Shown piece by piece: positions 1 to 61,100 of a stretch of 64,000 nt of DNA. The position numbers were made by a program, and so were the translations under genes. Position 1 is the first letter of the stretch; each line of letters begins with the position of its first letter. Below the pieces are notes generated by a model that had not been told where the DNA came from, made no database searches, and saw nothing but the letters and a program-made list of their open reading frames with translations. Origin of the DNA: Ferribacterium limneticum (GTDB lineage Bacteria > Pseudomonadota > Gammaproteobacteria > Burkholderiales > Rhodocyclaceae); the NCBI RefSeq assembly GCF_020510585.1, contig NZ_CP075190.1:4028001-4092000 (forward strand), in the 5' to 3' direction.

Positions 1-290
1 TTGGCGATATTGGCCCAGGCAGCGCGCCCGAAGGTGATCGGCACTTTCTTGACGACCACGTCGGCCGGCAACTTGGCGGCCCAGGCGGTCAGTAGCGGAT
101 TGAAATCGGCGCAGTGCGGGCAGCCGTAGCTGAAAAACTCGAGAACCTCGATTTTTGCAGCATCCTCAGTCGGCTGTGCCGGGCTGATCGGAGTGTAAGC
201 GGCGCCCTGAGCAAAAGACGGCATTGCTGCGGTCAACCCGAAAAAAAGGGCAAAAATGGAACCGACGAAACTGCGACGTGCATCCTTCAT
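1..290 (-). CDS. dsbA: DsbA-family thiol:disulfide oxidoreductase (partial, C-terminus outside window)
   Basis: The first 96 residues of a periplasmic disulfide oxidoreductase are visible; the rest lies beyond the window edge. A signal peptide (hydrophobic core FALFFGLTAAM, ending near SFAQG) is followed by KIEVLEFFSYGCPHCADF, the thioredoxin-fold strand with the CPHC active site typical of DsbA. It should oxidise cysteine pairs of exported proteins. The start at 290 is preceded by GGAG. The hydrophobic core of the signal peptide is written by an antisense copy of the dispersed repeat (227-261). A SPOR-domain gene lies just upstream on the same strand, 10 bp away, so the two are probably co-transcribed. 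Confidence 0.9.
   Translation of the reverse strand, partial: MKDARRSFVGSIFALFFGLTAAMPSFAQGAAYTPISPAQPTEDAAKIEVLEFFSYGCPHCADFNPLLTAWAAKLPADVVVKKVPITFGRAAWANIA
227..261 (+). repeat. Dispersed uptake-sequence-like repeat, copy A (in dsbA)
   Basis: Core CGGTCAACCCG, then an A-run, GGGC and AAAAATGGAA. Antisense to dsbA, where it encodes the signal-peptide core FALFFGLTAA. Carries C where the consensus has G after ACC. Confidence 0.85.
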
Positions 291-299
291 TCGTTACTC

Positions 300-914
300 C
301 TATTTGGCTAGTTGGGCTTCAACGCCTGATTTGGCAAGCTCGGCGCGTACTTTGTTCAATTCATCGATCTTCGTGTAGGGACCAACACGGACCCGATAGA
401 AGGTCTTGTCCTGAATCATCACCTGCTGGACAACGGCCTCTATACCCATAAACGCCAGCTTGGCCTTTTGGTTGTCAGCATCCTGCGCCGTGCTGAACGA
501 ACCGGCCTGCAGGAAGAGCGGGGTCTTCGACTCTTTGGACTCTTCCTTCTTCGCTTCCTCTTTCTTCGGCTCTTCCTTCCTGGCGTCCGGTTTGGGCGCC
601 TTGTCGGGCACGGCGTCGGCCTTGCCGGGCAGGATGTCGTAGAACTGGAAGCGTTTTTCCGGAATCGGATCGCCTGGCTTGCCGGGCAGCGCCAGCGGCT
701 GGCTCGGCTGACCGTTCTTGCCATTGGCTCCGTCCGCCCGAGCCGGCGGCTGCGCCCGCTCGACAAAAGGCAACGGCGACTTGTTGAGGTACCAGACGAC
801 ACCCGCCGCCATGCCAATGCCAATGACCAGGCCAATGAACATGCCGACCAGCGTACCGCCAGCCGCCTTCTTTTTCGCCGGCTGGCTCTTGCGGGGCTTC
901 ATATCGCGACTCAT
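300..914 (-). CDS. SPOR-domain membrane protein (FtsN-like)
   Basis: 204 residues. A basic cytoplasmic N-terminus (PRKSQPAKKKAAG) is followed by one membrane helix (GTLVGMFIGLVIGIGMAAGVVWYL, residues about 20-44). Next comes a long Pro/Lys/Glu-rich periplasmic linker, then a C-terminal SPOR domain (FLQAGSFSTAQDADNQKAKL ... YRVRVGPY). SPOR domains bind denuded septal peptidoglycan, and this single-pass layout is that of FtsN-like cell-division proteins. It lies directly downstream of argS (10 bp gap), an arrangement I recall from other betaproteobacteria. Whether it is the functional FtsN cannot be told from sequence alone. Confidence 0.85.
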   Translation of the reverse strand: MSRDMKPRKSQPAKKKAAGGTLVGMFIGLVIGIGMAAGVVWYLNKSPLPFVERAQPPARADGANGKNGQPSQPLALPGKPGDPIPEKRFQFYDILPGKADAVPDKAPKPDARKEEPKKEEAKKEESKESKTPLFLQAGSFSTAQDADNQKAKLAFMGIEAVVQQVMIQDKTFYRVRVGPYTKIDELNKVRAELAKSGVEAQLAK

Positions 915-923
915 GGCAATTCC

Positions 924-2687
924 TTACATGGATTCCGGACAGCTGACACCCAGAATGGTCAGGCCGTTGCGTATCGTCTGACGCACGGCGATGGCCAGCG
1001 CGACGCGGGCATCGCGTAGCGCCGCATCGTCGACCAGCATGCGCTCGGCGTTGTACCAGCCATGGAATTCACCAGCCAGATCCTTGAGGTAGAAGGCGAT
1101 CAGGTGAGGCGCCAGTTCGCGGGCGGCGTTGTCGATCAGGTCGCGGAACTCGGTCAGCTTGCTGGCAATGGCCAGTTCGCGCGGATTGCTGAGCAGCGAC
1201 AGATCGGCATCGGCCAGCGCAGCCTGATCACCGGCCCACTGATTGACCACCGAACAGATGCGGGCGTGAGCGTACTGGATGTAATAGACCGGGTTTTCGT
1301 TGGTCTGGCTCTTGGCCAGATCGAGGTCGAAATCGAGGTGCTGGTCGGACTTGCGCAGGGCATAGAAGAAACGGCAGGCATCGTTGCCAACCTCGCCGCG
1401 CAGCTCGCGCAGGGTGACGAATTCGCCCGAGCGCGTCGACATCGACGCCTTCTGGCCATTGCGGTAGAGCACGGCAAACTGGACGAGCGCCACCTGCAAC
1501 TTGCTGGCGTCCAGCCCGAGAGCCGTGATCGCCCCGTTAACGCGGGAAATGTAGCCGTGGTGGTCGGCGCCCCAGATGTTGATGACCTTGTCGAACCCGC
1601 GCTCGAACTTGTTCAGGTGGTAGGCGATGTCGGAAGCGAAATAGGTATAGAGGCCGTTCTCGCGCTGGACGACACGGTCCTTCTCGTCGCCGAACGTGGT
1701 CGACTTGAACCAGCGGGCACCATTCTGCACGTACAGATGGCCATTTTTTTCGAGCAGATCGACGCAACGGGCGACCAGGCCGGTATCGAACAGCGCCTGC
1801 TCGGAGAACCAGACGTCGAAATGAACGCCGAATTGCTCGAGATCGTCACGACAGTCGGCCAACTGCTCGGACAAGGCATGTTGATGGACGTAGGTCCAGT
1901 CAGCACCGAGCAAGGTCTTGGCGTTGGCGATCAGGGCATCGAGATGCTGGTCGCGTTGGCGCTTGGCCTCGTCGTCGGCCCGCTCGGCATCCGGCAAACC
2001 GGGCGTTCCGGCGAGCACGTCGGCAGCCTGACGGACGTATTTGGTGCCGTGCGCCGCGCTCATCTGCTTGGCCATGTCGCGCACGTAGTCGCCCTGATAG
2101 GCGTTGGGCAGGAAGGGCACGTCAACGCCGTTCTGCGCCAGGTAACGCAGCCAGGTCGACAAGCCGAGAATATCCATCTGCCGGCCGGCGTCATTGACGT
2201 AGTACTCGCGGGTCACATCCCAGCCAGCAAAAGTCAGCAGGTTGGACAAGGACGCGCCATAAGCCGCGCCACGGCCGTGGCCGACGTGCAGCGGGCCGGT
2301 CGGGTTGGCCGAAACGAATTCGACCTGCACCTTTTGCCAGCCACCCAGCGTAGACCGACCGAAATTCTCGCCCTCGGCCAGCACAGCCTTGACAACGCGG
2401 GTCTTAGCCCCGGCATCGAGGGTAAAATTGATGAAGCCGGCGCCGGCCACTTCAGCCTTGGTAACCAGGGCCGAGACCGGCAATTCATTCACCAGTTGCT
2501 GGGCAATTTCGCGCGGATTTTTCTTCAGCGCCTTGGCCAGTTGCATGGCCAGATTGGTCGCAAAGTCGCCGTGCGTCGGATCGCGCGGCCGCTCAAGTTG
2601 AATGGGGGTATCGGTTGCGGTCGGCGCAACGCTGGCCAGCGCCTGTTGCAGAAGGGCGGTCAGCTGGGTTTTGACGTCTAGGGGCAT
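924..2687 (-). CDS. argS: Arginyl-tRNA synthetase
   Basis: 587-residue class I aminoacyl-tRNA synthetase that charges tRNA-Arg. The HIGH-like signature is NPTGPLHVGHGRG (about residue 125), and the KMSKS loop appears as KASMSTRSG. The N-terminal additional domain (residues 1-85) and the C-terminal DALR anticodon-binding domain are both present, ending in ILGVSCPESM. The start at 2687 (MPLDVKTQL) is chosen over an in-frame ATG 84 bp upstream because the extra residues look like untranslated spacer and family proteins begin here. It appears to be the first gene of a short operon with the SPOR protein and dsbA. Confidence 0.96.
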   Translation of the reverse strand: MPLDVKTQLTALLQQALASVAPTATDTPIQLERPRDPTHGDFATNLAMQLAKALKKNPREIAQQLVNELPVSALVTKAEVAGAGFINFTLDAGAKTRVVKAVLAEGENFGRSTLGGWQKVQVEFVSANPTGPLHVGHGRGAAYGASLSNLLTFAGWDVTREYYVNDAGRQMDILGLSTWLRYLAQNGVDVPFLPNAYQGDYVRDMAKQMSAAHGTKYVRQAADVLAGTPGLPDAERADDEAKRQRDQHLDALIANAKTLLGADWTYVHQHALSEQLADCRDDLEQFGVHFDVWFSEQALFDTGLVARCVDLLEKNGHLYVQNGARWFKSTTFGDEKDRVVQRENGLYTYFASDIAYHLNKFERGFDKVINIWGADHHGYISRVNGAITALGLDASKLQVALVQFAVLYRNGQKASMSTRSGEFVTLRELRGEVGNDACRFFYALRKSDQHLDFDLDLAKSQTNENPVYYIQYAHARICSVVNQWAGDQAALADADLSLLSNPRELAIASKLTEFRDLIDNAARELAPHLIAFYLKDLAGEFHGWYNAERMLVDDAALRDARVALAIAVRQTIRNGLTILGVSCPESM

Positions 2688-2740
2688 TGATTCGTGGGGC
2701 AAAAATTGCAAAACGTCGATTATACGCTGCCGATCCCTAC

Positions 2741-3247
2741 TTATTTGGCTGGCGCGACAATCACCGACCACGCCGCGAGCTTGTCGGCGTAACTGCTCGC
2801 CGCGTGCGCCGGGCTGGTCGACGGCAGGCGGACCAGCTGCAGGTTCAAATCCTGAAGACTGGGCAAGACATAGCGGCGAAAAGTCGCCTCAGCCGCCCCG
2901 CCATTGAAGAAAACATGACGAATCCCACGGTGTACGGCAAAAAAGGCCAAAAAATCGTTAACGCAAACAGAGTGTTTGACGATGTTGGCATCGAGGCTGC
3001 CCGGACGCTCACCGGCGGCGATTACATCCCACAGCGCAATGCCGGCCGAGCGCAAGCTCTCCAGCCGCTGGGCATAAGGCAGGTCCGGCCCTGCACCAAT
3101 CAGATCGCCCATGATGCGCCAGAAGGCGTTTTGCCGGTTGGCGTAATACTCCTGCGCATTGAGCGATGCCTTGCCGGGAAGACTGCCAAGGACCAGCACG
3201 CGCGCCGACGGCGCGGCAACCGGCGGAAAACAGTGACTCAAATCCAT
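2741..3247 (-). CDS. Hypoxanthine/uracil-DNA glycosylase superfamily protein (DNA-deoxyinosine glycosylase type)
   Basis: 168 residues with the uracil-DNA-glycosylase fold signatures: motif A VLGSLPGKASL, a YYANRQNAFWRIM segment typical of the family-6 (hypoxanthine-DNA glycosylase) branch, VFFNG, and a C-terminal motif B LPSTSPAHA. Such enzymes excise deaminated bases (hypoxanthine from deoxyinosine) for base-excision repair. Residues 95-108 (FLAFFAVHRGI) are encoded over a degenerate antisense copy of the dispersed repeat (2923-2957), with no obvious gain in length. It lies upstream of argS on the same strand. The family call is firm; the substrate is inferred. Confidence 0.8.
   Translation of the reverse strand: MDLSHCFPPVAAPSARVLVLGSLPGKASLNAQEYYANRQNAFWRIMGDLIGAGPDLPYAQRLESLRSAGIALWDVIAAGERPGSLDANIVKHSVCVNDFLAFFAVHRGIRHVFFNGGAAEATFRRYVLPSLQDLNLQLVRLPSTSPAHAASSYADKLAAWSVIVAPAK
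2923..2957 (+). repeat. Dispersed repeat, copy B (degenerate, in DNA glycosylase gene)
   Basis: CCCACGGTGTACGG, then CAAAAAAGGCC and AAAAAATCG. Three core mismatches and one base shorter. Encodes FLAFFAVHRG antisense. Confidence 0.6.
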
Positions 3248-3261
3248 CGAAAAATGAGCCG

Positions 3262-16927: not shown

Positions 16928-18919
16928 TTAGCGCTTGTTTCCGGCCAGCATGGCCTTCATGGCATCGAGCCGGGCACTACCGGTGGCCTTGTCAGGCGGG
17001 ATATCCTGTTTGCCGCCGGTAAAACGGACATCTTCCTTGCCCATTTCGTCGATGAAGCGCGATGGCTCGCAGGGCACGAATTCGCGGGCCTGCTTGCGGC
17101 GTTCGCAGTAAGAGATATTCAGGGTGTGCTGGGCGCGGGTGATGCCAACGTACATCAGGCGGCGTTCTTCCTCGAGCTTGGCCGGATCGACCGATTCACG
17201 GTGCGGCAGGATGCCTTCCTCGACGCCGACCAGGAAGACATTCTTGTACTCCAGCCCCTTGGCGGCATGCAGCGTCGACAGTTGCACCGCGTCGTATTCG
17301 TCGTCGTTTTTCTTGTCGAGCATGTTGATCAGCGCGATGCTCTGGGTCAGATCAACCAGCGTTTTGCCGTCCTGTTCGCCCTTCTTGTTGAGCCAGTTGG
17401 CAAATTCGCAGACGTTGGCCCAGCGTGTCTGCGCCGTGCGCTCCTCTTCGTGGTCGTAGAGAAAGGTTTCGTAATCGATGGCCTTGAGCAGGTCGGGCAG
17501 GACCTGATGCGCCGGCTCTTTGCTGGCCCGTGACTGGGTGCGGTTGATGAAGTTGCAGAATTCGAGCAGGGGGTCGAGCTGACGGGGCTGGACTCGGTGC
17601 GCGAAGCCTTCTTCAAAGGCGGCCTGGAAGAGCGAGACGTGGCGCTCGCCGGCATAGATGCCGAGCACCTGTAGCGTCGCCGCACCGATGCCGCGCTTGG
17701 GCGTCGTGGCGGCGCGAATGAAGGCCGGATCGTCGTCTTCGTTGGTCAACAAGCGCAGGTAGGCGGTGATGTCCTTGATTTCGGCCTTGTCGAAGAAGGA
17801 TTTGCCGCCGGAAAGCAGGTAGGGAATGCGGTGGTCGCGCAGGTATTCCTCGAAAATCCGCGCCTGGTGGTTGGAGCGGTAGAGGATGGCGTAATCCTTG
17901 AATTTGGCGCGATGCTCGAACTTGTGCGCCTGCAGTTTCATGACCACGCCTTCGGCCTCGGCATCGTTGTCGCGGCAGGCCGTAACGGAAATCTGTTCGC
18001 CGTAGCCAAGATCGGACCACAGCTTCTTGTCGAACAGTTTTTCGTTGTGCGAGATGACGTTGTTGGCGGCCTTGAGGATTCTTACGGTCGACCGGTAATT
18101 TTGCTCAAGTTTGATGACCTTGAGGGCGGGAAACTCGGTCGGCAGTTTCTTGAGATTCTCGATATCGGCGCCACGCCAGCCGTAGATCGCCTGATCGTCA
18201 TCGCCCACCGCCGTGAATTGGGCGCGAACGCCGGTCAGCAGTTTGAGTAGCTGGTACTGACAGGCGTTGGTGTCCTGGTATTCATCGACCAGCAGGTAGC
18301 GCAGGCGGTTCTGCCACTTGTCGGCGATTTCCGGATGCTCGCTGAACAGTTTGACCGGCAAGCCAATCAAATCGTCGAAATCAACCGCCTGATAGGCCTT
18401 GAGCGTCGCTTCATAGGACAGGTAGGCGTGGGCGGCCAGCTTTTGATGTTCGTCGGTAGCCAGATGGCGCGCCGCTTCTGGGGTGATCAGCCCATTCTTC
18501 CAGTTGGAAATGGTGGATTGGACGATGCGCAGCGTCGCCTTGTCGACGGTACCGGCCGTTTCGCTGATGATGCCTGCGCAGTCAGCCGAATCGAAAATCG
18601 AGAAACGCGGCTTGTAGCCGAGCGCCTTGGCCTCCTCGCGCAGGATGCGGACGCCCAGCGAGTGGAAGGTTGAAATCTGCAACTCGTCGGCTTGTTGCTT
18701 GGAGAGCAGCTTGCCGATGCGCTCCTGCATTTCCTTCGCCGCCTTGTTGGTGAAGGTGATGGCGGCAATATTGCGCGGGTTGAAGCCGCAACTCTGCACC
18801 AGATAGGCGATTTTCTGCGTGATCACCCGCGTTTTGCCCGATCCGGCACCCGCCAGCACCAGCAGGGGGCCGTCGAGGTAGTGGATCGCTTCGCGTTGCG
18901 GTTGATTGAGGCCGGACAT
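16928..18919 (-). CDS. rep: ATP-dependent DNA helicase Rep (UvrD/PcrA superfamily 1A)
   Basis: 663 residues. Motif I is LVLAGAGSGKTRVITQKI (residues about 21-38), Ia ITFTNKAAKEM, motif II LVDEYQDTN, motif III VGDDDQAIYGWRGA, motif IV EQNYRST, and motif VI MYVGITRAQHTLNISYCERR. Length and the N-terminal MSGLNQPQREAIHYLDGP fit Rep, the 3'-5' helicase that clears proteins ahead of replication forks. The C-terminal tail is short, unlike the longer UvrD C-terminus. Single gene. Confidence 0.93.
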   Translation of the reverse strand: MSGLNQPQREAIHYLDGPLLVLAGAGSGKTRVITQKIAYLVQSCGFNPRNIAAITFTNKAAKEMQERIGKLLSKQQADELQISTFHSLGVRILREEAKALGYKPRFSIFDSADCAGIISETAGTVDKATLRIVQSTISNWKNGLITPEAARHLATDEHQKLAAHAYLSYEATLKAYQAVDFDDLIGLPVKLFSEHPEIADKWQNRLRYLLVDEYQDTNACQYQLLKLLTGVRAQFTAVGDDDQAIYGWRGADIENLKKLPTEFPALKVIKLEQNYRSTVRILKAANNVISHNEKLFDKKLWSDLGYGEQISVTACRDNDAEAEGVVMKLQAHKFEHRAKFKDYAILYRSNHQARIFEEYLRDHRIPYLLSGGKSFFDKAEIKDITAYLRLLTNEDDDPAFIRAATTPKRGIGAATLQVLGIYAGERHVSLFQAAFEEGFAHRVQPRQLDPLLEFCNFINRTQSRASKEPAHQVLPDLLKAIDYETFLYDHEEERTAQTRWANVCEFANWLNKKGEQDGKTLVDLTQSIALINMLDKKNDDEYDAVQLSTLHAAKGLEYKNVFLVGVEEGILPHRESVDPAKLEEERRLMYVGITRAQHTLNISYCERRKQAREFVPCEPSRFIDEMGKEDVRFTGGKQDIPPDKATGSARLDAMKAMLAGNKR

Positions 18920-19000: not shown

Positions 19001-19052
19001 AAAATCGGCCATTTTTACGTTTCACGAAGTAAACCCGGTTGACCGTGGAAGC
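19001..19052 (-). repeat. Dispersed repeat, copy D (split by an insertion)
   Basis: Minus-strand core CCACGGTCAACCGGG, then about 17 inserted bases containing TTCGTGAA, and only then AAAAATGGCCGATTTT. 5 bp after the stop of the 105-aa gene. Confidence 0.75.
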
Positions 19053-19418: not shown

Positions 19419-20108
19419 TTAATTCAGCGCGCCAAAGACGTTTTTCAGCAGATCGCTGCCGGCGCCCATCGGGTTGGCGCGCAACTTCTTTTCCTCTTCG
19501 GCGATCATCAGGAACAGGCCGTCCATGGCCTTCTGCGTCACGTAGCTGTCGACGTCGGCATTCTGTTTATCGACCAGACCGGCGCTCGCTGCCTTGCCGG
19601 CAAACTTGTTGTACTGGTCGGCCAGCTTGAGCTTGGTGGTTTCCTTCTTGACGATGGGCTTGAACTTGGCGGTCAGCTGATCGGTCGAGGTCCGCTTGAA
19701 ATACTGCGTCACGCTGTCCTCGCCGCCGGTCAGAATGTCCTTGGCGTCCTTGATGCTCATCTTCCTGATCGATTCGGTCAGGATGGGCTTGGCTTCGGCC
19801 ACGGCATTTTCAGCCGCGTGATTCATCGTTTCGACCAGTTGGTCAGCCTGCTTGCCCAGGCCGAACATGCGCAGGGCCGAATCGGCCTTTTCCAGATAGC
19901 CGGGCAGCTTGATCTTGACCTTGTCGTTGCCGAGGAAGCCGCCATTCTTGCCGAGGGACGCGACAGCGTAATCAGCCCCCTTGGCCAGCGCCTCCTTGAC
20001 GCCGGCGCTGGCGTCGCCGCTGGAAATGGCATCGAGCGCCCCGGCCTGGGCGAATCCCACGGTCAACCCGAAAAAAATCGCAAAAACGGAATGTTTCAAG
20101 GCAGGCAT
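19419..20108 (-). CDS. Secreted DUF4197 protein
   Basis: 229 residues. The signal peptide MPALKHSVFAIFFGLTVGFAQA precedes a DUF4197 domain (LDAISSGDASAGVKEALAKGADYAVASLGKNGGFLGND ... VDSYVTQKAMDGLFLMIAEEEKKLRANP). The family is widespread in proteobacteria and mostly helical; its role is unknown. The start at 20108 has AAAGGAG upstream. The signal peptide core FAIFFGLT is written by an antisense copy of the dispersed repeat (20054-20092), the same solution as in dsbA. It lies downstream of pilTU on the same strand. Confidence 0.88.
   Translation of the reverse strand: MPALKHSVFAIFFGLTVGFAQAGALDAISSGDASAGVKEALAKGADYAVASLGKNGGFLGNDKVKIKLPGYLEKADSALRMFGLGKQADQLVETMNHAAENAVAEAKPILTESIRKMSIKDAKDILTGGEDSVTQYFKRTSTDQLTAKFKPIVKKETTKLKLADQYNKFAGKAASAGLVDKQNADVDSYVTQKAMDGLFLMIAEEEKKLRANPMGAGSDLLKNVFGALN
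20054..20092 (+). repeat. Dispersed repeat, copy E (in DUF4197 gene)
   Basis: CCCACGGTCAACCCG, A7, TCGC and AAAAACGGAA. Antisense, encoding the signal-peptide core FAIFFGLTVGF. Confidence 0.88.
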
Positions 20109-25336: not shown

Positions 25337-26032
25337 TTACGATCTGAAGAGACGTGAATATTGGGTTTCGTGGCGGGCGCAGGCGATAGCAAAGGCCGGG
25401 GTGAAATTGGACCATTTCGATTTTGGCCAATTTTTCCGGTTGACCGTGACATCCGGGATTTGCCGGCCGAGATCGGCCAGCAGGCGTTGTCCGGCTGCCT
25501 GGCCGAGCGGCACTGCCTTGAGAGCAGCCATCACCTGGTTTTCGGCCCATGACCAGAGGTAGGCGGTGAGCGCGGCTTCCGGGTCGATCTGCCAGGCGGC
25601 CGCGATGCCGGCCCAGACCGTCGGAAACGCCACTTCGGGCAGAGCTTCGACCGTGGTCATCACGCTGCTTAGCGAATCGTCGCGCAGATCGCGCAGCAGG
25701 CGACGCATCGAGAAACCCATCTGGGCCGTTTCGGCGCGCAGTTCGGCCGATTCCCGGCTGGCCAGGAATTCGGCGTTGAGGCAGTCGATCTCGGCCATGT
25801 CGTCGGCCGACCAGGCTGCCATCAAGGCAACGACCAGTGGCGCCTCGTAACTGCCGATGCCATGGTGCAGCAGGTCAGCGATCCAGCGCCCCGCCCCCGC
25901 CTCGTCGCGGATGATGCCGAACTCGACCGCCCACTCCAGCCCCTGCGAATAGGTGTAGGCGCCGACCGGCAGGGCCGGGCTGGCCAGTTGCAGCAGGCGG
26001 GCGAGTTGGAGCATTGACGAAGCTGGATTCAT
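25337..26032 (-). CDS. ureF: Urease accessory protein UreF
   Basis: 231 residues; [25 protein letters not shown] at the N-terminus and [17 protein letters not shown] at the C-terminus are UreF hallmarks. It acts with UreD and UreG in nickel insertion. Between these, residues [18 protein letters not shown] are encoded by a sense copy of the dispersed repeat (25413-25454). The segment between two family prolines has about the length I expect in other UreF proteins, so residues appear replaced rather than added. The start overlaps the upstream tautomerase stop (ATGA). Confidence 0.93.
25413..25454 (-). repeat. Dispersed repeat, copy F (in ureF)
   Basis: Minus-strand GTCACGGTCAACCGG, AAAAATT, GGCC, AAAATCGAAA. 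Sense to ureF, encoding [13 protein letters not shown]. Confidence 0.9.
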
Positions 26033-29123: not shown

Positions 29124-29990
29124 TCAGGTATTCCAGATTCGGGGGGTAACTGCCGGTCGACCGCAGCAGGCCGGGCGCAGGATGGCCCACAGGTCGGCGA
29201 ACCACAATCGGGCGGCTTCGCCGCTGTCGCCGAGGTAGCGGGCGACGAGCATGCCGGGCAAGGCGCTCAGGCCATGATTGGCGCCATCGGCGGGAGCGAT
29301 CTTGCGGCAGGCTTCGAGCAGGGCCGCTGACTGCTGCGGCAATTCGGGAAAAGCGCACAGCAAGGTGCCGCACACCGTGGCGCCAGCCCAGCCGGCCGGG
29401 CTGCTCAACATCGCGTCGTTGCCGTTGAAACCGCCGCGTTCAAGCCAGATCGGTTGATTGCTACGGTCAACCCGAAAAAACAGGTCAAAACGACCATTTT
29501 CAAAACGCTCGCCAGCCGCCGCGCGACCAAGGCACAGGATGTCCCAGCCGATATAGCGGCTGTCGGCGGCCAATGAAACACGGGTTTCCATTCGCGCCCG
29601 GGCGCCGTCGAAGATGATGGTTTCCTGCGGCAGCCATTCCAGCGTGGCGCCGGCGGCCACCTTGAAGCTTATGCACTGCGAAGCCTCGGCGCCGCCACTG
29701 CGGTACCACTTGCCCGCCCCCGGCGTCGTCAGTTGCGCGTGGGCGCCAGCATCAATCTCGACTGAAATCGCCAGATGATCACCGCCGGCAATGCCTGATG
29801 GCGGATGCAGCACAATGGCCTGACAGACCGCATCGCCCTCCGGATACAGCGCTTTCTGCACACGTAGCGGCCCCCGATGCCGGTTTTCGCGCAACACCGT
29901 GCGTTCGCCATGGCGGGCGAAGCCAAGATGCAACTCGGCGTGCCAGCTCGGCGAATGCTCCGGCGGCGATACGGGAAGGCGCGAGGTCAT
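29124..29990 (-). CDS. ureD: Urease accessory protein UreD
   Basis: 288 residues, first gene of the operon. Landmarks: SWHAELHLGFARHGERTVLRENRHRGPLRVQKALYPEG, LHPPSGIAGGDHLAISVEI, AQLTTPGAGKWYRS, WLPQETIIFDGARARMETRV. UreD scaffolds apo-urease for UreFG. Residues FDLFFRVDRSNQPIW are encoded by an antisense copy of the dispersed repeat (29458-29497); the flanking family pattern (GRF ... LER) keeps its normal spacing. The promoter lies in 29991-30110; no clean box was identified. Confidence 0.94.
   Translation of the reverse strand: MTSRLPVSPPEHSPSWHAELHLGFARHGERTVLRENRHRGPLRVQKALYPEGDAVCQAIVLHPPSGIAGGDHLAISVEIDAGAHAQLTTPGAGKWYRSGGAEASQCISFKVAAGATLEWLPQETIIFDGARARMETRVSLAADSRYIGWDILCLGRAAAGERFENGRFDLFFRVDRSNQPIWLERGGFNGNDAMLSSPAGWAGATVCGTLLCAFPELPQQSAALLEACRKIAPADGANHGLSALPGMLVARYLGDSGEAARLWFADLWAILRPACCGRPAVTPRIWNT
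29458..29497 (+). repeat. Dispersed repeat, copy G (in ureD)
   Basis: GCTACGGTCAACCCG, AAAAAA, CAGGTC, AAAACGACC. Antisense to ureD, encoding DLFFRVDRS. Confidence 0.82.
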
Positions 29991-32216: not shown

Positions 32217-32250
32217 GATGTTTTGTCCTGTTCGGGTTGGCTGCCGGGGT

Positions 32251-32288
32251 TTCCACGGTCAACCGGAAAAAATGCCCAAAATTGAAAT
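32251..32288 (+). repeat. Dispersed repeat, copy H
   Basis: TTCCACGGTCAACCGG, AAAAAAT, GCCC, AAAATTGAAA. Near-consensus, 17 bp beyond the urtD stop. Confidence 0.93.
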
Positions 32289-46244: not shown

Positions 46245-46307
46245 TCGGCAGGCCGGCGGTTAGCGGTTGGACATGGCGATAATCATCGCGATGACCGCCC
46301 GGGCAGC

Positions 46308-46347
46308 TTCCTACGGTCAACCGGAAAAGATGCCAAAAAACGGAAAT
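46308..46347 (+). repeat. Dispersed repeat, copy L
   Basis: TTCCTACGGTCAACCGG, AAAAGAT, GCC, AAAAAACGGAAA. Ends on the stop codon of the NarL-type regulator. Confidence 0.9.
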
Positions 46348-52869: not shown

Positions 52870-53664
52870 ATGACTACCCACATCGACATCCGCCAGGTCA
52901 ACAAGGTCTTTCGCACCGGCGAACGGGAAGTGATCGCCCTCAAGGAGATCAATCTCGAAATCAGGCAAGGCGAGTTCGTCTGCCTGCTCGGCCCCTCGGG
53001 CTGCGGCAAATCGACGCTGCTCAACGCCGTGGCCGGCTTTCAGCCGCCATCGAGCGGCGAAATAGTCATCGAAGGCAAGAAGATCCTCAAGCCTGGCCCG
53101 GATCGCGGCATGGTCTTCCAGGAATACGCCCTCTTTCCGTGGATGACGGTGGCCCAGAACATCGCCTTCGGCCTCGAAATCCAGAAAAAGGACAAGGCCG
53201 AGATCGAGCTGACGGTGAACCAGTTGCTCGACCTGCTGCACCTCACCGACTTCCGCGATCGTTTCCCGAAGGATCTCTCCGGCGGCATGCGCCAGCGCGT
53301 TGCCATCGCCCGCGTGCTCGCCCTCGACTCGCCGATCATGCTCATGGACGAGCCGTTCGGCGCCCTCGACGCGCTGACCCGGCGCAACCTGCAGGACGAG
53401 CTGCTGCGCATCTGGGAAAAGCTCGGCAAGACCATCCTCTTCGTCACCCACTCGATCGAGGAGTCGATCTACCTGGCCGACCGCATCGTCGTCATGACCT
53501 ACCGCCCCGGCACGGTCAAACGCGACCAGATCGTCGACATGCCACGGCCGCGCGATCCGTCGTCGGCCGCCTTCAACGACCTCAAGCGCGAACTCGGCCG
53601 CCTGGTCATGGAGGAGCAGGAACGCCACGCCAACGACGAAATGAAACTTGCTGCGGTCGACTGA
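52870..53664 (+). CDS. ABC transporter ATP-binding protein (TauB/SsuB type)
   Basis: 264 residues. Walker A CLLGPSGCGKSTLLNAVAGF, Q-loop GMVFQEYALFPWMTVAQNI, signature LSGGMRQRVAIARVL, Walker B IMLMDEPFGALDALTRRNLQ, H-loop LFVTHSIEESIYLADRI. Energises the permease at 50903. A degenerate copy of the dispersed repeat (53651-53684) spans its stop codon. Confidence 0.94.
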   Translation: MTTHIDIRQVNKVFRTGEREVIALKEINLEIRQGEFVCLLGPSGCGKSTLLNAVAGFQPPSSGEIVIEGKKILKPGPDRGMVFQEYALFPWMTVAQNIAFGLEIQKKDKAEIELTVNQLLDLLHLTDFRDRFPKDLSGGMRQRVAIARVLALDSPIMLMDEPFGALDALTRRNLQDELLRIWEKLGKTILFVTHSIEESIYLADRIVVMTYRPGTVKRDQIVDMPRPRDPSSAAFNDLKRELGRLVMEEQERHANDEMKLAAVD

Positions 53665-53695: not shown

Positions 53696-55525
53696 GTGAA
53701 TCCCAACCAAGTCCCCCGCCCGGCCGGGCGAAATCGCCGCACCCTGCTCCTGCTCGGTGCGGCGGTTTGTTTCTGCCTGCTGCTCGGCGGGCTGACCTAC
53801 CGCGTCTTCTTCGGCATCCATCTGGACAGCGACCGGCATCTGTCCGCCCAGCGCCTCGACGCCTTTGCTCTGTCGCTCGACGCCACGCTGGCCCGCCACG
53901 AATCGCTGCCCGGCCTGCTCGCCCTCGACCCGTCGCTCGCCGCGCTGCTCCGCGACCCGGGCAACCCGCAACGGATCGCCGCTGCCAACGCCTACCTTGA
54001 AGCCGCCCAGCAGGGCGCCGCGGTCGCCGCGACCTATCTGATCGACGCCAAAGGCATGACCCTGGCCGCCAGCAACTGGCGCCTGCCGCACAGCTTCGTC
54101 GGCCACAACTACGCCTTTCGCCCCTATTTCCGCGACGCGCTGAAGAATGGCCTCGGTCGTTTCTACGGCGTCGGCGTGACCACCGGCGAACCCGGCTATT
54201 TCCTCGCCGCCCCGGTCCGCGAACAGGGCAAGGCGCTCGGCGTAATCGTCCTCAAGGTGGGTTTGGAAGCCATGGAACAAGCCATGGCCGGCGCCGGCGA
54301 AACACTGCTGCTGGCCGATGCCGACGGCATCGTCTTTCTCTCCTCGGACCGCCAGTTGCATTACCGGACGCTGGCGCCGCTCAGCGCCGCGGTCAGTGCC
54401 CGACTGGCCGAGACTCAGCAATATGGCAACCAGGCCATCAGGCCGTTGGCCACCCGGACGATTCCGCTCAACGCCAGCGAACCGATCCGCCTCGCCCTGC
54501 CCGAACAGGCGCCCCGCGAATGGCTGATCCACGCCCGGCCGGTCGGCAATTCAGGTTGGCAGGTCGTCCAGTTGGGCGACCCCGGCGAAGCGCGCAGCAC
54601 GGCAACCGCCGCCGCCACTGCCGTCGCCTTCGCCACTGCCTTCCTGCTCGGCGTCGCCGCTCACTTTCGCCAGCGCAGCCGCCGGCGCGAAGAATTGCGC
54701 CGCATCTACGCCGAACTTGAAACCCGCATCGCCGAACGTACGGCCGATCTGACCGAGCAGATCGCCGCCCTCGAGAGCACCAAGGCGATCCTGCGCGAAA
54801 CCCGCGACGCCGCCGTGCAGGCCGGCAAGCTGGCGACGCTGGGTCAGATGTCGGCCGGCATCAGCCACGAACTGAACCAGCCGCTGGCCGCCCTGCAAAC
54901 CTTTGCCGACAACGCCAGCGCCCTGCTCGCCCGCAGCCGTTACGACGAAGTCGCCGAGAACCTGCAGATGATCAGCGAGCTGGTCGACCGCACCGGGCGC
55001 ATCGTGCGCCAGCTCAAGACCTTCGCCCGCAAGGAAGCGCCGACGCCGCAGGCGGTAACGGTGACGAGCGCCATCGAACACGCGTTGATGATCGTCGAGC
55101 CGCGTCGCCGCGAAATCGGCGCGCGCATTGCCGTCGCTCCATCCGCGCCAGATTTGCTGGTCGTCGCCGAAGCCGGTCGGCTGGAGCAGATACTGGTCAA
55201 CCTGCTGCGCAACGGGCTGGACGCCATGGCCGGTCAGCCGGAACCGGTGCTCGACGTGGCGACCCGGCGCGACGGCGACGCCGTCAGCATCGCCGTCAGC
55301 GATCATGGCGCCGGCCTGTCGGACGACGCCCGCAGCCACCTCTTCGAGCCTTTCTACACCACCAAGCCGGCCGGCGAAGGCCTCGGCCTCGGCTTGGCCC
55401 TGTCGCTGACCATCGCCGAAAGTTACGGCGGCACGCTGAGCGCGCACAATGCGCCCGAAGGCGGCGCCGTTTTCGTGCTGAGCCTGCCTTCTGCTGGAGA
55501 GACCAATGCCCCATCTGACGCTTGA
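53696..55525 (+). CDS. DctB-type membrane sensor histidine kinase
   Basis: 609 residues. First TM (TLLLLGAAVCFCLLLGGLTYRVFF, about 15-38); a periplasmic double-PAS-like (PDC) domain (about 45-285); second TM (TAAATAVAFATAFLLGVAAHF); a coiled-coil linker (LRRIYAELETRIAERTADL); HisKA with AGISHELNQPLAALQTFADNAS (the DctB-type HExNQPLAAL box); HATPase with HGAGLSDDARSHLFEPFYTTKPAGEGLGLGLALSL. The start is GTG 53696. It senses an external, probably organic-acid-like, ligand and phosphorylates the DctD-type regulator. Its end overlaps the tautomerase gene by 20 bp. Confidence 0.92.
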   Translation: MNPNQVPRPAGRNRRTLLLLGAAVCFCLLLGGLTYRVFFGIHLDSDRHLSAQRLDAFALSLDATLARHESLPGLLALDPSLAALLRDPGNPQRIAAANAYLEAAQQGAAVAATYLIDAKGMTLAASNWRLPHSFVGHNYAFRPYFRDALKNGLGRFYGVGVTTGEPGYFLAAPVREQGKALGVIVLKVGLEAMEQAMAGAGETLLLADADGIVFLSSDRQLHYRTLAPLSAAVSARLAETQQYGNQAIRPLATRTIPLNASEPIRLALPEQAPREWLIHARPVGNSGWQVVQLGDPGEARSTATAAATAVAFATAFLLGVAAHFRQRSRRREELRRIYAELETRIAERTADLTEQIAALESTKAILRETRDAAVQAGKLATLGQMSAGISHELNQPLAALQTFADNASALLARSRYDEVAENLQMISELVDRTGRIVRQLKTFARKEAPTPQAVTVTSAIEHALMIVEPRRREIGARIAVAPSAPDLLVVAEAGRLEQILVNLLRNGLDAMAGQPEPVLDVATRRDGDAVSIAVSDHGAGLSDDARSHLFEPFYTTKPAGEGLGLGLALSLTIAESYGGTLSAHNAPEGGAVFVLSLPSAGETNAPSDA

Positions 55526-55868
55526 ATACACCCGCAACCTGAGCGATTTCGATCCGACCGTGGCGCTCGCCGCGATCAATGCGGCGGCCTTCGATTCCGG
55601 CCTGTTCGGCGAGCCGGATATCAAGAGCCGGGCCATCGGTCTCGATTGCTTTCAGATCGGCGTTCTGCCCGGCGCGCGCGGCTTCATCCACATCCGCATT
55701 GCCCTGCTGGCCGGGCGCAGCGACGAGGAACGGCAGCATTTGGCCGAGGCCGTGCTGGCGGCGCTGAATGCCACGGTCAACCGGAAAAAAGGCATGGAAA
55801 TCCAACTCAGCGTCGAAACGGTCGATCTCGACCGGGCCAGCTACGCCAAGGCCGTGATCGATGGCTGA
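55506..55868 (+). CDS. 5-carboxymethyl-2-hydroxymuconate isomerase-type tautomerase
   Basis: 120 residues starting MPHLTLEYTRNL (Pro1 catalytic after Met removal), with FIHIRIALLAGRSDEERQHLAEAVLAAL and IQLSVETVDLDRASYAKAVI. CHMI family, an enzyme of homoprotocatechuate breakdown. Residues ATVNRKK come from a sense copy of the dispersed repeat (55767-55804). It overlaps the kinase gene before it by 20 bp and the dctD-type gene after it by 8 bp, so all three are co-translated. Suggests an aromatic-acid or dienoic substrate for the transporter. Confidence 0.85.
   Translation: MPHLTLEYTRNLSDFDPTVALAAINAAAFDSGLFGEPDIKSRAIGLDCFQIGVLPGARGFIHIRIALLAGRSDEERQHLAEAVLAALNATVNRKKGMEIQLSVETVDLDRASYAKAVIDG
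55767..55804 (+). repeat. Dispersed repeat, copy O (in CHMI-type tautomerase gene)
   Basis: ATGCCACGGTCAACCGG, AAAAAAG, GCATGG, AAATCC. Sense, encoding NATVNRKKG. Confidence 0.88.
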
Positions 55869-57192
55869 ACTGACAGTATTTCTGGTTGAGGACGACGCAG
55901 CCGTCCGCAAAGGCTGCGAGCAGGCGCTGTCGCTGGCCGACATCCCGGTGCGCGGCTTTGCCGATGGCGAAGCCATGCTTGCCGCGCTGGTTGCCGGCCA
56001 GCCGGCGTTGGTGGTGACCGACGTGCGCCTGCCGGGCAAGGACGGCCTCGAACTGCTGCGCGAACTGCGCCAGCACGACCGCGAACTGCCGGTGCTGCTG
56101 ATGACCGGCCACGGCGACGTGGCCATGGCTGTCGAGGCGATGCGCGAAGGCGCCTACGATTTCATCGAAAAGCCGTTCCCCTCAGAGCGCCTGATCGCCG
56201 CCGTGCGCAGCGCCCTAGAAAAGCGCGCCCTGATCCTCGAAAACCGGCAGCTCAAGGAACGCATCGGCGACAACGGCGTCGCCCGCATCATCGGCCAGTC
56301 GCCCATCATGCAGCGCATTCGCCAGCTCGTCGGCACGCTGGCGCCGACCGGCGTCGATATCCTGCTCAATGGCGAAACCGGTAGCGGCAAGGAAGTCGCC
56401 GCCCGCGCCATCCACGAAGCCAGCCACCGGCGCGGCCCTTTCGTCGCCATCAATTGCGGTGCGCTGCCTGAAACGGTCTTCGAAAGCGAGCTGTTCGGCC
56501 ACGAAGCGGGCGCTTACACCGGGGCCGGCAAACGCCGTATCGGCCGCATCGAACACGCCAACGGCGGTACGCTGTTCCTCGACGAAATCGAGTCGATGCC
56601 ACTCAACCTGCAGGTCAAGTTGTTGCGCGTGCTGCAGGAACGCAGCGTCGAGCGGCTGGGCAGCAACGCGGCGATTCCCGTCGATTGTCGGCTGGTCGCG
56701 GCGAGCAAGATCGACCTCAAGGCGGCGTCGGATGCCGGCCAGTTCCGCGCCGATCTGTATTACCGCCTCAACGTCGTCAGCCTCGACCTGCCGCCACTGC
56801 GCCAGCGGCGCGAGGATATTCCGCTGCTCATGGCGCATTTCCTGCACGAAGCGGCGCTGCGTTTCCAGCGCCCGTTGGCGGGTTGGACGCCGGCCGATCT
56901 GGCGCGCTGGTCGGCCCACGACTGGCCGGGCAATGTCCGCGAATTGAAGAACGTCGCCGAACGCTGGGCCCTCGGCCTGCCCGACGCGCTGCGCGGAAAC
57001 GAGGTGCCGGTACCAGCCGCGCTGTCGCTGGCCGAGCAGGTCGATGCAACCGAACGCCAGATCATTGAAAGCGTGCTTGGCCAGTGCGCCGGCAACGTCG
57101 CCCAGGCCGCCGAAGTGCTGCACACTCCGAAGAAAACGCTGTACGACAAGCTGACCCGGCACGGCATCGCGGCAGACAACTTCAGGCATTGA
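55861..57192 (+). CDS. DctD-type sigma-54 response regulator
   Basis: 443 residues. Receiver (1-120): [18 protein letters not shown], phospho-accepting [26 protein letters not shown]+ core (about 140-370): [15 protein letters not shown] (Walker A), GAYTGA at about 221 (the sigma-54-contact GAFTGA loop, Y for F), [12 protein letters not shown] (Walker B), [11 protein letters not shown]. Fis-type HTH at the end: [28 protein letters not shown]. It should activate the sigma-54 promoter at 49848 by binding 49738-49784. Confidence 0.94.
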
Positions 57193-57200
57193 GGCCGGCG

Positions 57201-57260
57201 ATTTTCCACGGTCTACCGGGCTTGCTACGGTCAACTGGAAAAAACGGCCAAAATTGAAAT
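57201..57260 (+). repeat. Dispersed repeat, tandem copies P1 and P2
   Basis: P1 (57201-57220): TTTTCCACGGTCTACCGGG, core only, without A tracts. P2 (57221-57260): GCTACGGTCAACTGG, AAAAAAC, GGCC, AAAATTGAAA. Between convergent genes, 4 bp from the LuxR-type regulator stop. Confidence 0.88.
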
Positions 57261-57263
57261 GAC

Positions 57264-58190
57264 TCAGGCGCCGCGCATCTTGCTCATGGCCAGATTGGCC
57301 GCTGCCGTGCGCGTTTCAACGCCGAGTTTCTCGAAGACGTGTTCGAGGTGCTTGTTAACCGTGCGCGGGCTGTTGCCGAGGATTTCGCCAATGTCATTAC
57401 TCGTCTTGCCCTGCACGACCCAGTAAAGCACTTCGGCCTCGCGCTGGGTCAGGCGGAAGGCGGCGATCAGCGATTCGACGGCCGAGGCGTCGTTTTCCTC
57501 GCGCAGCACGACGAGCCATTCATCGTCGCCGGTCTGGTCGTGGAACGACGCGAGCAGGCGCTTGTTGCCTTCGGCGATGAGCAGGGCCGGCGCATCGCGG
57601 CCATCGGCGCGGGCGCGCAGAGCGGCGGCGATCCAACTCAGCAGCTCTTCCGGGGCGACCGTTTCCGGGTTGGCGAAATAGGCGTTGAGCAGGCTGCGGG
57701 CGAGCGGCGTCTGCCAGACAATCTTGCTGTCGGCGGCGCGCACGGCGACGGTAGCCTGGCCGAAGGCATCGAGCGCGCTGCGCGCCTGCTTCATCTGCCG
57801 GGCGTTGGCCATGTGGGCAGCGATGCGGGCCAGTACCTCGGCCGGGCGGATCGGCTTGGTGACGTAATCGGCACCACCAGCGGCGAAGGCAGCGACGACG
57901 TGCTCGGTTTCGGTCAGGCCGGTCATGAAGACGATGGGGATGTGCTGGGTCGAGAAATCGGCTTTCAGGCGACGGGCCACTTCGAAGCCGTCCATGCCGG
58001 GCATCAGCGCGTCGAGCAGAATGACGTCGGGCAGGCTCTGGCGTGCCCGCTGCAACGCCGCTTCGCCGTGCGTCGCGACGAGCACGGTGTAGCCGGCCTC
58101 GTCTAACGCATCGTGCAGCAGGGAGAGGTTTTCCGGCACATCGTCCACGATCAGGACGATGTCGGAGATGGTCCGGTCAACTGGCGGCAT
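57264..58190 (-). CDS. LuxR-type response regulator with long central region
   Basis: 308 residues. Receiver (10-125): VLIVDDVPENLSLLHDALDEAGY, LLDALMPGMDGFEVARRL (Asp about 59), KPIRPAEVLARI. A central region of about 100 residues (QATVAVRAADSKIVWQTPLARSLLNAYFANPET) looks PAS-like. C-terminal LuxR HTH: LTQREAEVLYWVVQGKTSNDIGEILGNSPRTVNKHLEHVFEKLGV. It overlaps the permease-kinase gene by 14 bp, so the two form one two-component unit. Confidence 0.9.
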   Translation of the reverse strand: MPPVDRTISDIVLIVDDVPENLSLLHDALDEAGYTVLVATHGEAALQRARQSLPDVILLDALMPGMDGFEVARRLKADFSTQHIPIVFMTGLTETEHVVAAFAAGGADYVTKPIRPAEVLARIAAHMANARQMKQARSALDAFGQATVAVRAADSKIVWQTPLARSLLNAYFANPETVAPEELLSWIAAALRARADGRDAPALLIAEGNKRLLASFHDQTGDDEWLVVLREENDASAVESLIAAFRLTQREAEVLYWVVQGKTSNDIGEILGNSPRTVNKHLEHVFEKLGVETRTAAANLAMSKMRGA

Positions 58191-61100
58191 CGCGCATTTT
58201 CCTGAGAATTTCCTTCATCGCATCGAACTGGAATTGTCGCGCAAGATCGCGCAGGATGCGGACGAATTCGCCGTGGCTGGCATCCATCCGCTCGATCTCG
58301 GCGAGCTTGTTGAGGATGCCGCGCAGGTAGCCGAGGGTGATCAGTTCATCGAGCGCGGCCATTTCGGTTTCATCAGGCGGCAGCAGCGGCAGGGGTTCGG
58401 CTGGCGCGGCGGGGGTTGCGGCGACCGGTGCTTCGGCGGTGACCCATTCGAGGTCGAGCTTGCGGCCCAGCCAGGCGAGCAGTTCGTCGACCTTGAGCGG
58501 CTTGACGATGAAATCGTCGGGCGTCACGCCGACATCGTTGTCCAGCCCCTTGTCGTAGGCGTTGGCCGAGAGGATGGCAATGCTGGCCTCGTTATGGCCC
58601 TGCTGACGCAGGCGGCGGATGGTTTCCCAGCCATCGATGCCGGGCATGCCGAGGTCCATGAAAATCAGGTGCGGCGCGAAACGCGGCACGGCGGCCAGGC
58701 ATTCGTAGCCGCTGGCCGCCTGCTCGACAACGAAGCCGAGCGGTTCGAGGACATTTTGCAGCAGGTCGCGGTCGACCTTTTCGTTGTCGACCACCAGAAT
58801 GCGCTGCCGCACGCCGACGTAGCCGATGCGGTTGAGTTTGGGCAGTTCCCGCGCCGCCTGCGCCGAATGCACCGAGGGCAGGAAGAGGCGGATGCGGAAC
58901 AGCGTGCCTTCGCCCGGCGGGCTCGACACCTGCATTTCACCGCCCATGAGGTCGGTCAGCATGCGGGCGATGGTCAGGCCGACGCCGCTGCCGCCAGCCT
59001 GCACGCTGCTGCCGCGCGTGAAAGGCTCGAAGATGCGCTCCATGTCGGCAGCCGGAATACCGGGGCCGGTGTCGCGGATTTCAAAAATCGCCATGTCGCG
59101 CCGGCATTCGACGCCGAAAGTGACGCCGCCGCGCACGGTGAATTTGACGGCGTTGCCGAGCACGTTGATCAGGATCTGACGCAGGCGTTTTTCGTCGGCT
59201 CGGACGACAGCCGGCACCTCGCCGAGCGGCCGGTACTCAAAGCTCAGCCCCTTGTTGCGCGCTTGCAGCTCGAACATGCCGACGATCTGCTGCATCAGTT
59301 CGGGGAAATCCATCGCCCTAACGTCAAGCGTCAGCTTGCCGCCCTCGATGCGGGCGATGTCGAGCGTGCCTTCGATAACCGACAGCAGGTGGTCGCCGGA
59401 TTTGCGGATGACGCTGACGGCCTGGGCACGGTTGGGCGGGACGTCCTCGTCGGCAGCGAGAATCTGGGCGTAGCCGAGGATGCTGTTGAGCGGTGTCCGT
59501 AGTTCGTGGCTGATCGCCGTGATGTAGCGGCTCTTGGCCTGGTTGGCCTGCTCGGCGACGACCCGGGCTTTTTGCAGCGCCTCATCGGTGCGCTGGTGCG
59601 ATTCGATTTCCTGCATGAGCAACTGCGTTTGCCGGTTCGACTCCTCCTGCGCGACGCGCCGGCTTTCCTGGGTCAGCACCATCCACCAGGCGATGACCCC
59701 GGAGAGCATGAGCAGCGCCGCGAAGGTCTTGATGAAGCTGTCCTGCAGGCGGGCAATGACGGCCGGTTCGGGTGCGCCGAGGGCCAGCAACTCGTGCGTA
59801 TAAAGCACGCCGAGAATCAGCGCGAGGATCGGCACGATGCCGGTCATCAGCAGCAGGTAGTGGCCGAGGCCGGTCTCAAGGTAAGGCAGCGCGGCCTTGG
59901 GCAGGATGCGCCGGAGCACCGCGTTCCATTGCGCGCCAAGATGGCCGGCCGGCTTGCACTGGTCATGGCAGCGGGCATCGAGCGTACAGCACAGCGAGCA
60001 GATCACGCCTTGGTAGGCGGGGCAGTAGGCCATGTCCTCGCCTTCGTAGTCGCGTTCGCAAATTGAGCATTTTTTTCGGTTGACCGTGGGAACCTCTTTG
60101 GGGCGGACCAAGTAGTAGCGCCCCCCCGTTCCCCAAGCAATCAGCGGCGAGGCAACGAACGCCGCGACCAGCGCGACAAATGGCGCATACGGCTGCAGCG
60201 CCTCGCCAAACAGCCCGACGAAGGTGCACACTGACAACAGCGAGGCGATGGCCATGGCGCCGACGCCAACCGGGTTGATGTCGTATAGATGACTGCGCTT
60301 GAACTCGATGCCCGGCGGCGACAGGCCAAGCGGCTTGTTGATGACGAGGTCGGCGACGACAGCCGCCATCCACGAAATGGCGATGTTCGAGTAAAGCCCG
60401 AGCACCTGGCCGAGCGCCTGGAAGACATCGAGTTCCATGAGGAGCAGCGCGATCAGGGTGTTGAAAACGACCCAGACAACGCGGCCAGGGTGGCTGTGCG
60501 TCAGCCGGGAGAAGAAATTCGACCAGGCCAGCGAACCGGCGTAGGCGTTGGTAACGTTGATCTTGAGCTGCGAAATGACGACGAACAGCGCCGTCGCAGC
60601 AACGGCCAGCGTCGTGTTGTCGAAGACGTGCGAAAAGCCGATCAGGTACATCTGGTTCGGGTCGACCGCCTTTTCGGCGGGAATGCCGTTGCGCAACACG
60701 AGCCAAGCGAGCAGTGCACCACCGAGCATTTTGAGGACGCCGGGCACCACCCAGCCCGGCCCGCCGATGATGACGGCCAGCCACCAACGCCGATTGTTGG
60801 CTGGCGTTTTTTCCGGCATGAAGCGCAGGTAATCGACCTGTTCCGCCATCTGCGTGACCAGCGCGATGCCGACGGTCAGCGCCGCCGCGAAGAGGTGCGG
60901 GTTGAAGCTGGCTTCACCGCCCCGCTCGCCGCCGTATTGCCAGAGGCCGGACAGCGCCTGCGGATCTTCGAGGAAAAGGAAGGCGTAGGGCAGGACGAGC
61001 AGGAAAATCCACAGCGGCTGCGTCCACGCCTGCAGTTTGCTGATCGCTGTGACGCCGTGGGTGACCAGAGGAATGACCACAAGCGCACAGATCAAGTAAC

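What the first reader, a model, noticed from the sequence alone, without database searches (positions are those of the whole stretch)
227..60096. A dispersed repeat with the architecture of a DNA uptake sequence
About 18 copies of one non-palindromic element lie in 64 kb, on both strands. The consensus is CCACGGTCAACCGG, then A6, YGGCC, then AAAATYGAAA. Fourteen copies keep CGGTCAACC exactly. A conserved core followed by two A-rich tracts about one helical turn apart is the plan of the Haemophilus/Pasteurellaceae uptake signal sequence (established knowledge). Copies sit between genes and in seven genes, without any transposase, target duplication or palindrome. Mobile short repeats and RAYT-type REPs fit less well. 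I propose an undescribed uptake sequence for natural transformation in this betaproteobacterium.
Basis: partly seen in the sequence, partly recalled or inferred. Interest (0 to 1): 0.92.

Follow-up and report, generated by a model that had tools for sequence, protein, structure and literature searches.

The report
Uptake-sequence-like motif family in Dechloromonas/Azonexus
A roughly 40-base DNA signature is scattered several hundred times through this environmental bacterium's genome, and related species carry their own spelling of it; it looks like the tag that a few bacteria use to recognise DNA of their own kind when taking it up, a trait so far reported from only two bacterial families.

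Summary
The repeat is real. Core CGGTCAACC occurs 15 times in the window (shuffle mean 0.62); a 40-bp matrix finds 18 sites. CGGTCAACCGG occurs 491 times genome-wide against 27 for its reversal. Sites are a core plus two A/T tracts 11 bp apart, in both orientations, half inside genes.

Related genomes favour an uptake sequence over a mobile repeat. Of 107 loci only 16 could be aligned to outgroups; 9 show zero length difference and none a clean 40-bp gain. The core is held far better than its flanks (2.6% against 10-17% mismatch). By a threshold of 40 copies, 37 of 76 genomes of the genus carry one of three spellings: YACGGTCAACCGG, CTGCGGTCAAC, CAGCGGTCGAC. The first two are not enriched in sampled other genera. 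CTGCGGTCAAC shares TGCGGTCAA with the published extended Haemophilus USS.

I found no uptake data and no receptor. [quoted passage not shown] this would be a third. A recurring double-core composite, and most intergenic copies, remain unexplained or untested.

The parts
223..262 (+). element, inside gene 3-290(-)
   Evidence: 48.7 bits; orthologues without a gap in the element in G255, G210, G221, G230, G266; degenerate in G218
2921..2960 (+). weak element inside gene 2741-3247(-)
   Evidence: 14.4 bits
10324..10363 (-). element, intergenic
   Evidence: 59.1 bits
18078..18117 (+). weaker element (CGGTCGACCGG) inside gene 16928-18919(-)
   Evidence: 22.5 bits; zero length difference to 11 outgroup genomes
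19013..19052 (-). element with an 18-bp insertion between core and A-tract (composite form), intergenic
   Evidence: 28.9 bits; simple form in G216, G215, G244, G230; G240 lacks 37 bases against this form
20053..20092 (+). element inside the DUF4197 gene 19419-20108(-)
   Evidence: 49.6 bits; other spellings or degenerate versions, without an element-sized gap, in related genomes
25414..25453 (-). element inside ureF 25337-26014(-)
   Evidence: 60.5 bits; UreF Pfam match
29457..29496 (+). element inside ureD 29124-29990(-)
   Evidence: 37.4 bits; UreD Pfam match
32249..32288 (+). element, intergenic
   Evidence: 64.3 bits
36630..36669 (+). element, intergenic
   Evidence: 59.9 bits
37956..37995 (+). 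element, intergenic
   Evidence: 44.9 bits
40316..40355 (+). element, intergenic, followed by a GC-rich hairpin
   Evidence: 61.5 bits; sequence
46307..46346 (+). element, intergenic
   Evidence: 48.4 bits
49670..49709 (-). element, intergenic
   Evidence: 60.6 bits
53647..53686 (+). weaker element across the end of gene 52870-53664(+)
   Evidence: 22.4 bits
55767..55806 (+). element inside gene 55506-55868(+) (CHMI family)
   Evidence: 37.8 bits; Pfam
57221..57260 (+). element; with the upstream CGGTCTACCGG at 57209 it makes a double core at 19-bp spacing
   Evidence: 56.0 bits; second core
60054..60093 (-). element inside histidine-kinase gene 58177-61569(-)
   Evidence: 44.8 bits; ungapped orthologues in G221, G244, G210, G230

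Best explanation
The element is a self-DNA uptake sequence for natural transformation in the Dechloromonas/Azonexus genus of Rhodocyclaceae, working like the Pasteurellaceae USS. A surface receptor on the competence type IV pilus (inferred, not found) contacts the CGGTC(A/G)AC core. The phased A/T tracts, one and two helical turns downstream, bend or soften the duplex so that it can be kinked into the secretin (inferred from the published USS model). Fragments that bear the element enter more often and recombine into the genome, so copies accumulate and are maintained in place by substitution plus biased recombination (shown for the alignable loci: equal-length differences, conservation, no clean insertion; inferred: the drive). 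Specificity changes between lineages, giving dialects, and is absent or lost in others.
For: Abundance: 491 exact 11-mers, 240/251 by strand, control 27. Architecture: 66 of 76 core sites have at least 4 of 6 A/T at +12..+17; 49.9 bits in all, 32.5 outside the 9-bp core; TpA steps are rare in the tracts (9 and 1, against AA 212 and 154). Sites lie between genes or at gene edges three times more often than expected (45 of 92), yet 47 of 92 are inside genes, 24 in the gene's sense and 23 opposite. In-place evolution: of 107 loci, 16 have an outgroup orthologue, 9 with zero length difference to at least one, none with a clean 40-bp gain. Conservation within the D1 clade: core mismatch 0.026 and tract 2 0.070, against 0.104 and 0.171 in the flanks. 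Dialects; at orthologous sites the clade and G266 differ mainly at the base before CGG (0.64, against 0 to 0.04 over +1..+8; 28 non-independent pairs). The run at +24..+27 is at least 60% A/T in all nine genomes examined. The two commoner spellings are not enriched in sampled other genera. A ComEC match in 71 of 76 genomes, including 51 of 51 good-quality ones; a ComP_DUS-family pilin in 70 of 76.
Against: I found no uptake or transformation data for this genus (searches; listings only). No receptor was found: the ispH-linked minor-pilin operon differs between G000 and G210, which share a dialect. Motif-less relatives also keep comEC, so comEC and motif are not clearly linked. A double-core composite recurs at 11 places in this genome, which suggests some copying. 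91 of 107 loci have no outgroup orthologue, and 7 of the 16 that do show only non-zero length differences (-27 to +83). At the 19013 locus G240 lacks 37 bases against the composite form and 18-20 against the simple form, which could be an insertion or a deletion. Tract 1 (0.102) is no better conserved than the left flank, and the seven bases before the core (0.217) are worse than either flank. G266 and G233 carry both spellings, so dialects are not clean everywhere. The estimated density (about 876 per 4.42 Mb, extrapolated) is below that of H. influenzae (2,206 USSs).
Confidence: 0.8

Rival explanations
1. A mobile short interspersed repeat (REP/RAYT- or MITE-like) that copies itself into new sites.
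For: About 40 conserved bases is long for an uptake sequence; a double-core composite recurs at 11 places in G000 and in 11 of 76 genomes, all above the motif threshold; an 18-19 bp length difference recurs at the 19013 locus and G240 lacks 37 bases there.
Against: No clean 40-bp gain at the 16 loci with outgroup orthologues; copies inside genes differ by equal-length substitutions; A and T are interchangeable in the tracts; at the same orthologous site species carry different spellings that largely follow their dialect.
Confidence: 0.07
2. A binding site for a chromosome-organising or nucleoid-associated protein, spread by selection on chromosome structure.
For: Phased A-tracts suit a bending protein; the core is an imperfect inverted repeat; 18 of 20 sampled stretches and the window hold sites.
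Against: No strand bias by contig half in the sample (20+/20- and 30+/22-; origin position not tested); 39 of 76 genus members fall below 40 copies of each tested spelling; dialect turnover would be unusual for a chromosome-wide function; the core matches the USS.
Confidence: 0.09
3. A transcription terminator or regulatory element.
For: Sites are enriched between genes (45 of 92 between genes or at gene edges, about 16% expected); one copy adjoins a hairpin (window 40316).
Against: About half are inside genes in both orientations (24 same, 23 opposite); the consensus has no GC-rich stem followed by a T-run (read).
Confidence: 0.03

Closest known systems
Pasteurellaceae uptake signal sequence (Hin-USS, Apl-USS)
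   Same: Core plus A/T tracts; subtypes differing in the bases before GCGGT; evolution in place by point mutation (published, passages). The published extended Hin-USS AAAGTGCGGTCAATTTT shares TGCGGTCAA with spelling CTGCGGTCAAC, and extended Apl-USS AACAAGCGGTCAAATTT shares GCGGTCAA.
   Different: Found in a betaproteobacterium; the published 9-mers are not enriched here; spelling D1 changes GCGG, the published crucial inner core, to ACGG; about 40 bp long; CCGG sits between core and first tract in D1; lower density.
Neisseriaceae DNA uptake sequence (DUS) and its receptor ComP
   Same: Family-wide dialects, with five family genomes lacking an obvious DUS; type IV pilus and ComEC background; a PF16732 pilin in most genomes.
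   Different: The published DUS is a continuous motif up to about 13 nt with core CTG; sequence unrelated and not enriched here; PF16732 is also found in most motif-less members.

Membership tests
Pasteurellaceae USS | Hundreds or more copies far above expectation | tested here: met
   491 against 27
Pasteurellaceae USS | 9-mer AAGTGCGGT or ACAAGCGGT enriched | tested here: not met
   0 and 3 in 464 kb of G000 (reversed controls 2 and 10); at most 3 of either in each of 21 other sampled genomes
Pasteurellaceae USS | Inner core GCGG | tested here: inconclusive
   Present in D2 and D3, ACGG in D1
Pasteurellaceae USS | Discontinuous motif with A/T tracts | tested here: met
Pasteurellaceae USS | Arises by substitution, not insertion | tested here: inconclusive
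   No clean insertion at 16 testable loci and equal length at 9 of them, but 91 of 107 loci untestable and one locus with an unresolved 18-37 base difference
Pasteurellaceae USS | Stimulates DNA uptake | not testable with these tools
   Needs an assay
Neisseriaceae DUS | Continuous motif with CTG core | tested here: not met
   Discontinuous motif with core CGGTCRAC; GCCGTCTGAA at most 1 in each sampled genome
Neisseriaceae DUS | ComP as receptor | tested here: inconclusive
   PF16732 in 70 of 76, motif-bearing or not
REP/RAYT or MITE repeat | Insertion at new loci with clean empty sites | tested here: not met
   No such case at 16 testable loci
REP/RAYT or MITE repeat | Associated transposase gene | not tested
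   Only 10 window genes, several of them near copies, were scanned, none a transposase; no genome-wide RAYT search was made

The most novel reading that the evidence does not exclude
The betaproteobacterial genus and the gammaproteobacterial Pasteurellaceae read the same basic word (GCGGTCAA plus phased A-tracts) through related receptors, so the USS system is older or more mobile than thought and is not confined to mucosal host-associated bacteria.
Probability: 0.25. Interest if true: 0.94.

Novelty: new variant of a known kind. Interest (0 to 1): 0.86.

Why it matters
Sequence-tagged DNA uptake is described as limited to two families (PMC12616744, passages; PMC7811141, passages). A third lineage, probably free-living (inferred from the genus), with dialects, losses and many genomes, would let the origin of uptake sequences, drive against selection, and receptor-motif coevolution be tested comparatively. 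It would challenge explanations tied to mucosal habitats and could make these environmental bacteria genetically tractable.

Tried and rejected
Receptor by orthology: the PF16732 pilin and the ispH-linked minor-pilin operon do not follow dialect, since G000, G210 and G240 share D1 but carry unlike cassettes while ispH (83%, 76%) and fkpB (96%, 95%) stay similar to G000. A second pilin locus (L317) also did not follow dialect: the G000 pilin is 55% identical to G210 (D1) and 57% to G266. Link between comEC loss and motif loss: motif-less G218 and G250 have interrupted comEC, but motif-bearing G230 does too; I made no formal test. A histidine kinase as synteny anchor failed because of paralogues. 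Copy-free stretches L012 and L027 carry accessory-type genes among the five proteins scanned in each; two stretches are too few to conclude. Plasmids: no match to one 101-bp copy with flanks. Strand-biased chromosome signals look unlikely on strand counts. CAGCGGTCGAC was not counted outside the genus.

Full report
WHAT IS THERE. The window is C1:4028001-4092000 of a 4,419,140-base single-contig genome. The core CGGTCAACC is 24 times more frequent than in shuffles. I took twenty 20-kb stretches at 200-kb steps, which with the window make 464 kb, and aligned the 76 core sites. Information rises above background from about -7 to +33: ATTSCYA, CGGTCAACCGG, a six-base A/T tract (+12..+17), YGSCC, a second tract (+23..+28), GAAAT. 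In the tracts AAAAAA, AAATTT and AATTTT occur side by side while TpA is rare, the pattern expected if DNA shape rather than sequence is kept. A matrix from 66 sites (10 sites with fewer than 4 A/T in tract 1 were left out) finds 92 sites at 10 bits or more, against 0 on the reversed sequence and 1 on one shuffle. Extrapolated, this is about 876 per genome. By my simple codon-usage gene finder, 47 of 92 sites lie in genes (83.5% expected, p = 6e-13), 24 in the gene's sense and 23 opposite.

HOW COPIES EVOLVE. I compared stretches from 20 other genomes of the genus. In the DUF4197 gene (window 20060) the alignment has no element-sized gap: nine of ten genomes of the D1 clade read CCACGGTCAAC; G233 (the tenth), G266 and G177 CTGCGGTCAAC; G220 CTGCGGTGAAC; G202 CAGCGGTCAAC (not its own commonest CAGCGGTCGAC); G218, G199, G206, G203, G112, G242 and G247 have no such core. 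The gene ending near 290 behaves alike. From 178 element sites in the ten D1-clade genomes (107 loci), 752 pairs had both flanks found and 611 passed my edge filter (flank alignments ending within 25 bases of the element); the others were dropped. Of the 611, 464 had zero length difference: 336 of 448 within the clade and 128 of 163 against other genomes. Pairs are not independent. By locus, 16 have an outgroup orthologue: 9 with zero difference to at least one, 7 with only other differences (-27 to +83), none a clean 40-base gain; within the clade 15 of 19 comparable loci differ by at most 2 bases. Against: 91 loci could not be tested with outgroups, and at the 19013 locus G240 lacks 37 bases against the composite form, 18-20 against the simple form. 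In zero-difference pairs whose 45-base flanks mismatched at 50% or less, clade genomes differ by 2.6% in the core, 7.0% in tract 2, 10.2% in tract 1 and 21.7% just before the core, against 10.4% and 17.1% in the flanks; against G266 the base before CGG differs in 64% of pairs while +1..+8 differ in 0-4%; against motif-poor genomes the core differs by 32% (flanks 18% and 35%) (336, 28 and 71 pairs).

DIALECTS. Exact counts in 76 genomes of the genus, with 40 copies as my threshold: CGGTCAACCNGAAA in 14, CTGCGGTCAAC in 32, CAGCGGTCGAC in 2, with 306 and 313 copies; union 37 of 76. G242 is among them but 10% contaminated. The other 39 fall below the threshold; some are mildly enriched (G265: 23 CTGCGGTCAAC, control 5). 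The first pattern does not include the base before CGG; that D1 has YA there rests on sampled sequence: YACGGTCAAC against CTGCGGTCAAC is 77 against 7 in G000 and 17/5, 13/1, 17/1, 15/1, 14/2 in G221, G255, G230, G210, G244; G266 (10/12) and G233 (3/2) are mixed. G202's dialect was found blind from over-represented k-mers. In D2 and D3 genomes tract 1 may be weak, but +24..+27 stays at least 60% A/T in nine of nine genomes, background 37-42% (6 to 14 sites per genome, 62 for G000). In a one-gene tree of 33 genomes, rooted at the midpoint for drawing only, the ten D1-clade genomes fall together (support 83/95), with G266 near them and other CTGCGGTCAAC genomes elsewhere; I infer that D1 is derived and that several lineages lost the motif, but repeated gain is not excluded. 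In other genera of the family neither of the two tested cores is enriched: 194 sampled genomes (CGGTCAACCGG; highest 17, control 22; one had 12 against control 3) and 241 (CTGCGGTCAAC; highest 7).

WHO. That the genus is Dechloromonas/Azonexus is inferred from these titles and equal contig lengths. Two viral contigs hold an exact 18-mer of the element.

MACHINERY. A ComEC match is found in 71 of 76, the five misses being 70-89% complete genomes; some matches are partial or interrupted. PF16732 minor pilins occur in 70 of 76. The pilin operon beside ispH is highly variable and does not track dialect. Other competence genes were not searched. No receptor is proposed.

COMPARISON. [quoted passage not shown] PMC7811141 (passages) gives the crucial GCGG, the A/T tracts, the kinking model and evolution by point mutation. 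PMC3630211 and PMC2397512 (passages) describe DUS dialects and the absence of DUS from recently acquired genes. In the main texts of PMC5217627 and PMC1852404 Dechloromonas does not occur. The passages of the D. aromatica genome paper PMC2907700 for repeat, interspersed, competence, DNA uptake and pili mention no such motif. Searches for 'uptake sequence' with Dechloromonas and with Rhodocycl- gave 0 papers; Dechloromonas with natural transformation and competence gave 2, unrelated by title. A search for the core string anywhere gave 89 papers, of which the 20 listed are unrelated by title. Only open-licence PMC papers are searched, so a report elsewhere is possible.

VERDICT. It works like an uptake sequence with probability about 0.8 by my judgement. 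It is not filed as a Pasteurellaceae USS or a Neisseriaceae DUS, because defining sequence features are not met.

Noticed in passing
L280 4608 to L281 13236 (G230); L282 3693 to L283 15157 (G250): comEC is interrupted at about residue 281 of the G000 frame in two genomes by stretches of about 33 kb that begin with a large serine recombinase gene: apparently a mobile element using the DNA-import gene as its site. The middle of each was not fetched.
   Followed up: partly
L279 3635-5663 (G218): comEC lies in two overlapping frames in a motif-less close relative of the D1 clade; a sequencing error cannot be excluded.
   Followed up: partly
window 57202-57260; 19013-19052: Double-core composite with a second core about 19 bp downstream; CCGGGCTTGCTACGGTCNACCG occurs 11 times in G000 and in 11 of 76 genomes. 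The window 19013 site is a related form with an 18-bp insertion. How they recur is unexplained.
   Followed up: partly
L024 8316-15393 and L284-L295: The minor-pilin operon beside ispH is of unlike type between close relatives while ispH and fkpB are conserved.
   Followed up: partly
L317 1165-4473: A fast-evolving 846-aa protein without Pfam match and an adjacent 253-aa pilin; no homologue of either in the fetched G218 stretch, nor in the G204 stretch, where synteny ends.
   Followed up: partly
L328 9695-9712; L329 827-844: Two IMG/VR viral contigs hold the exact D1 18-mer, each followed by A-rich runs.
   Followed up: partly
L012 and L027: The only two of 20 sampled stretches without a site carry accessory-type genes (ring-hydroxylating dioxygenase; metal efflux, chromate transport) among the five proteins scanned in each.
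   Followed up: partly
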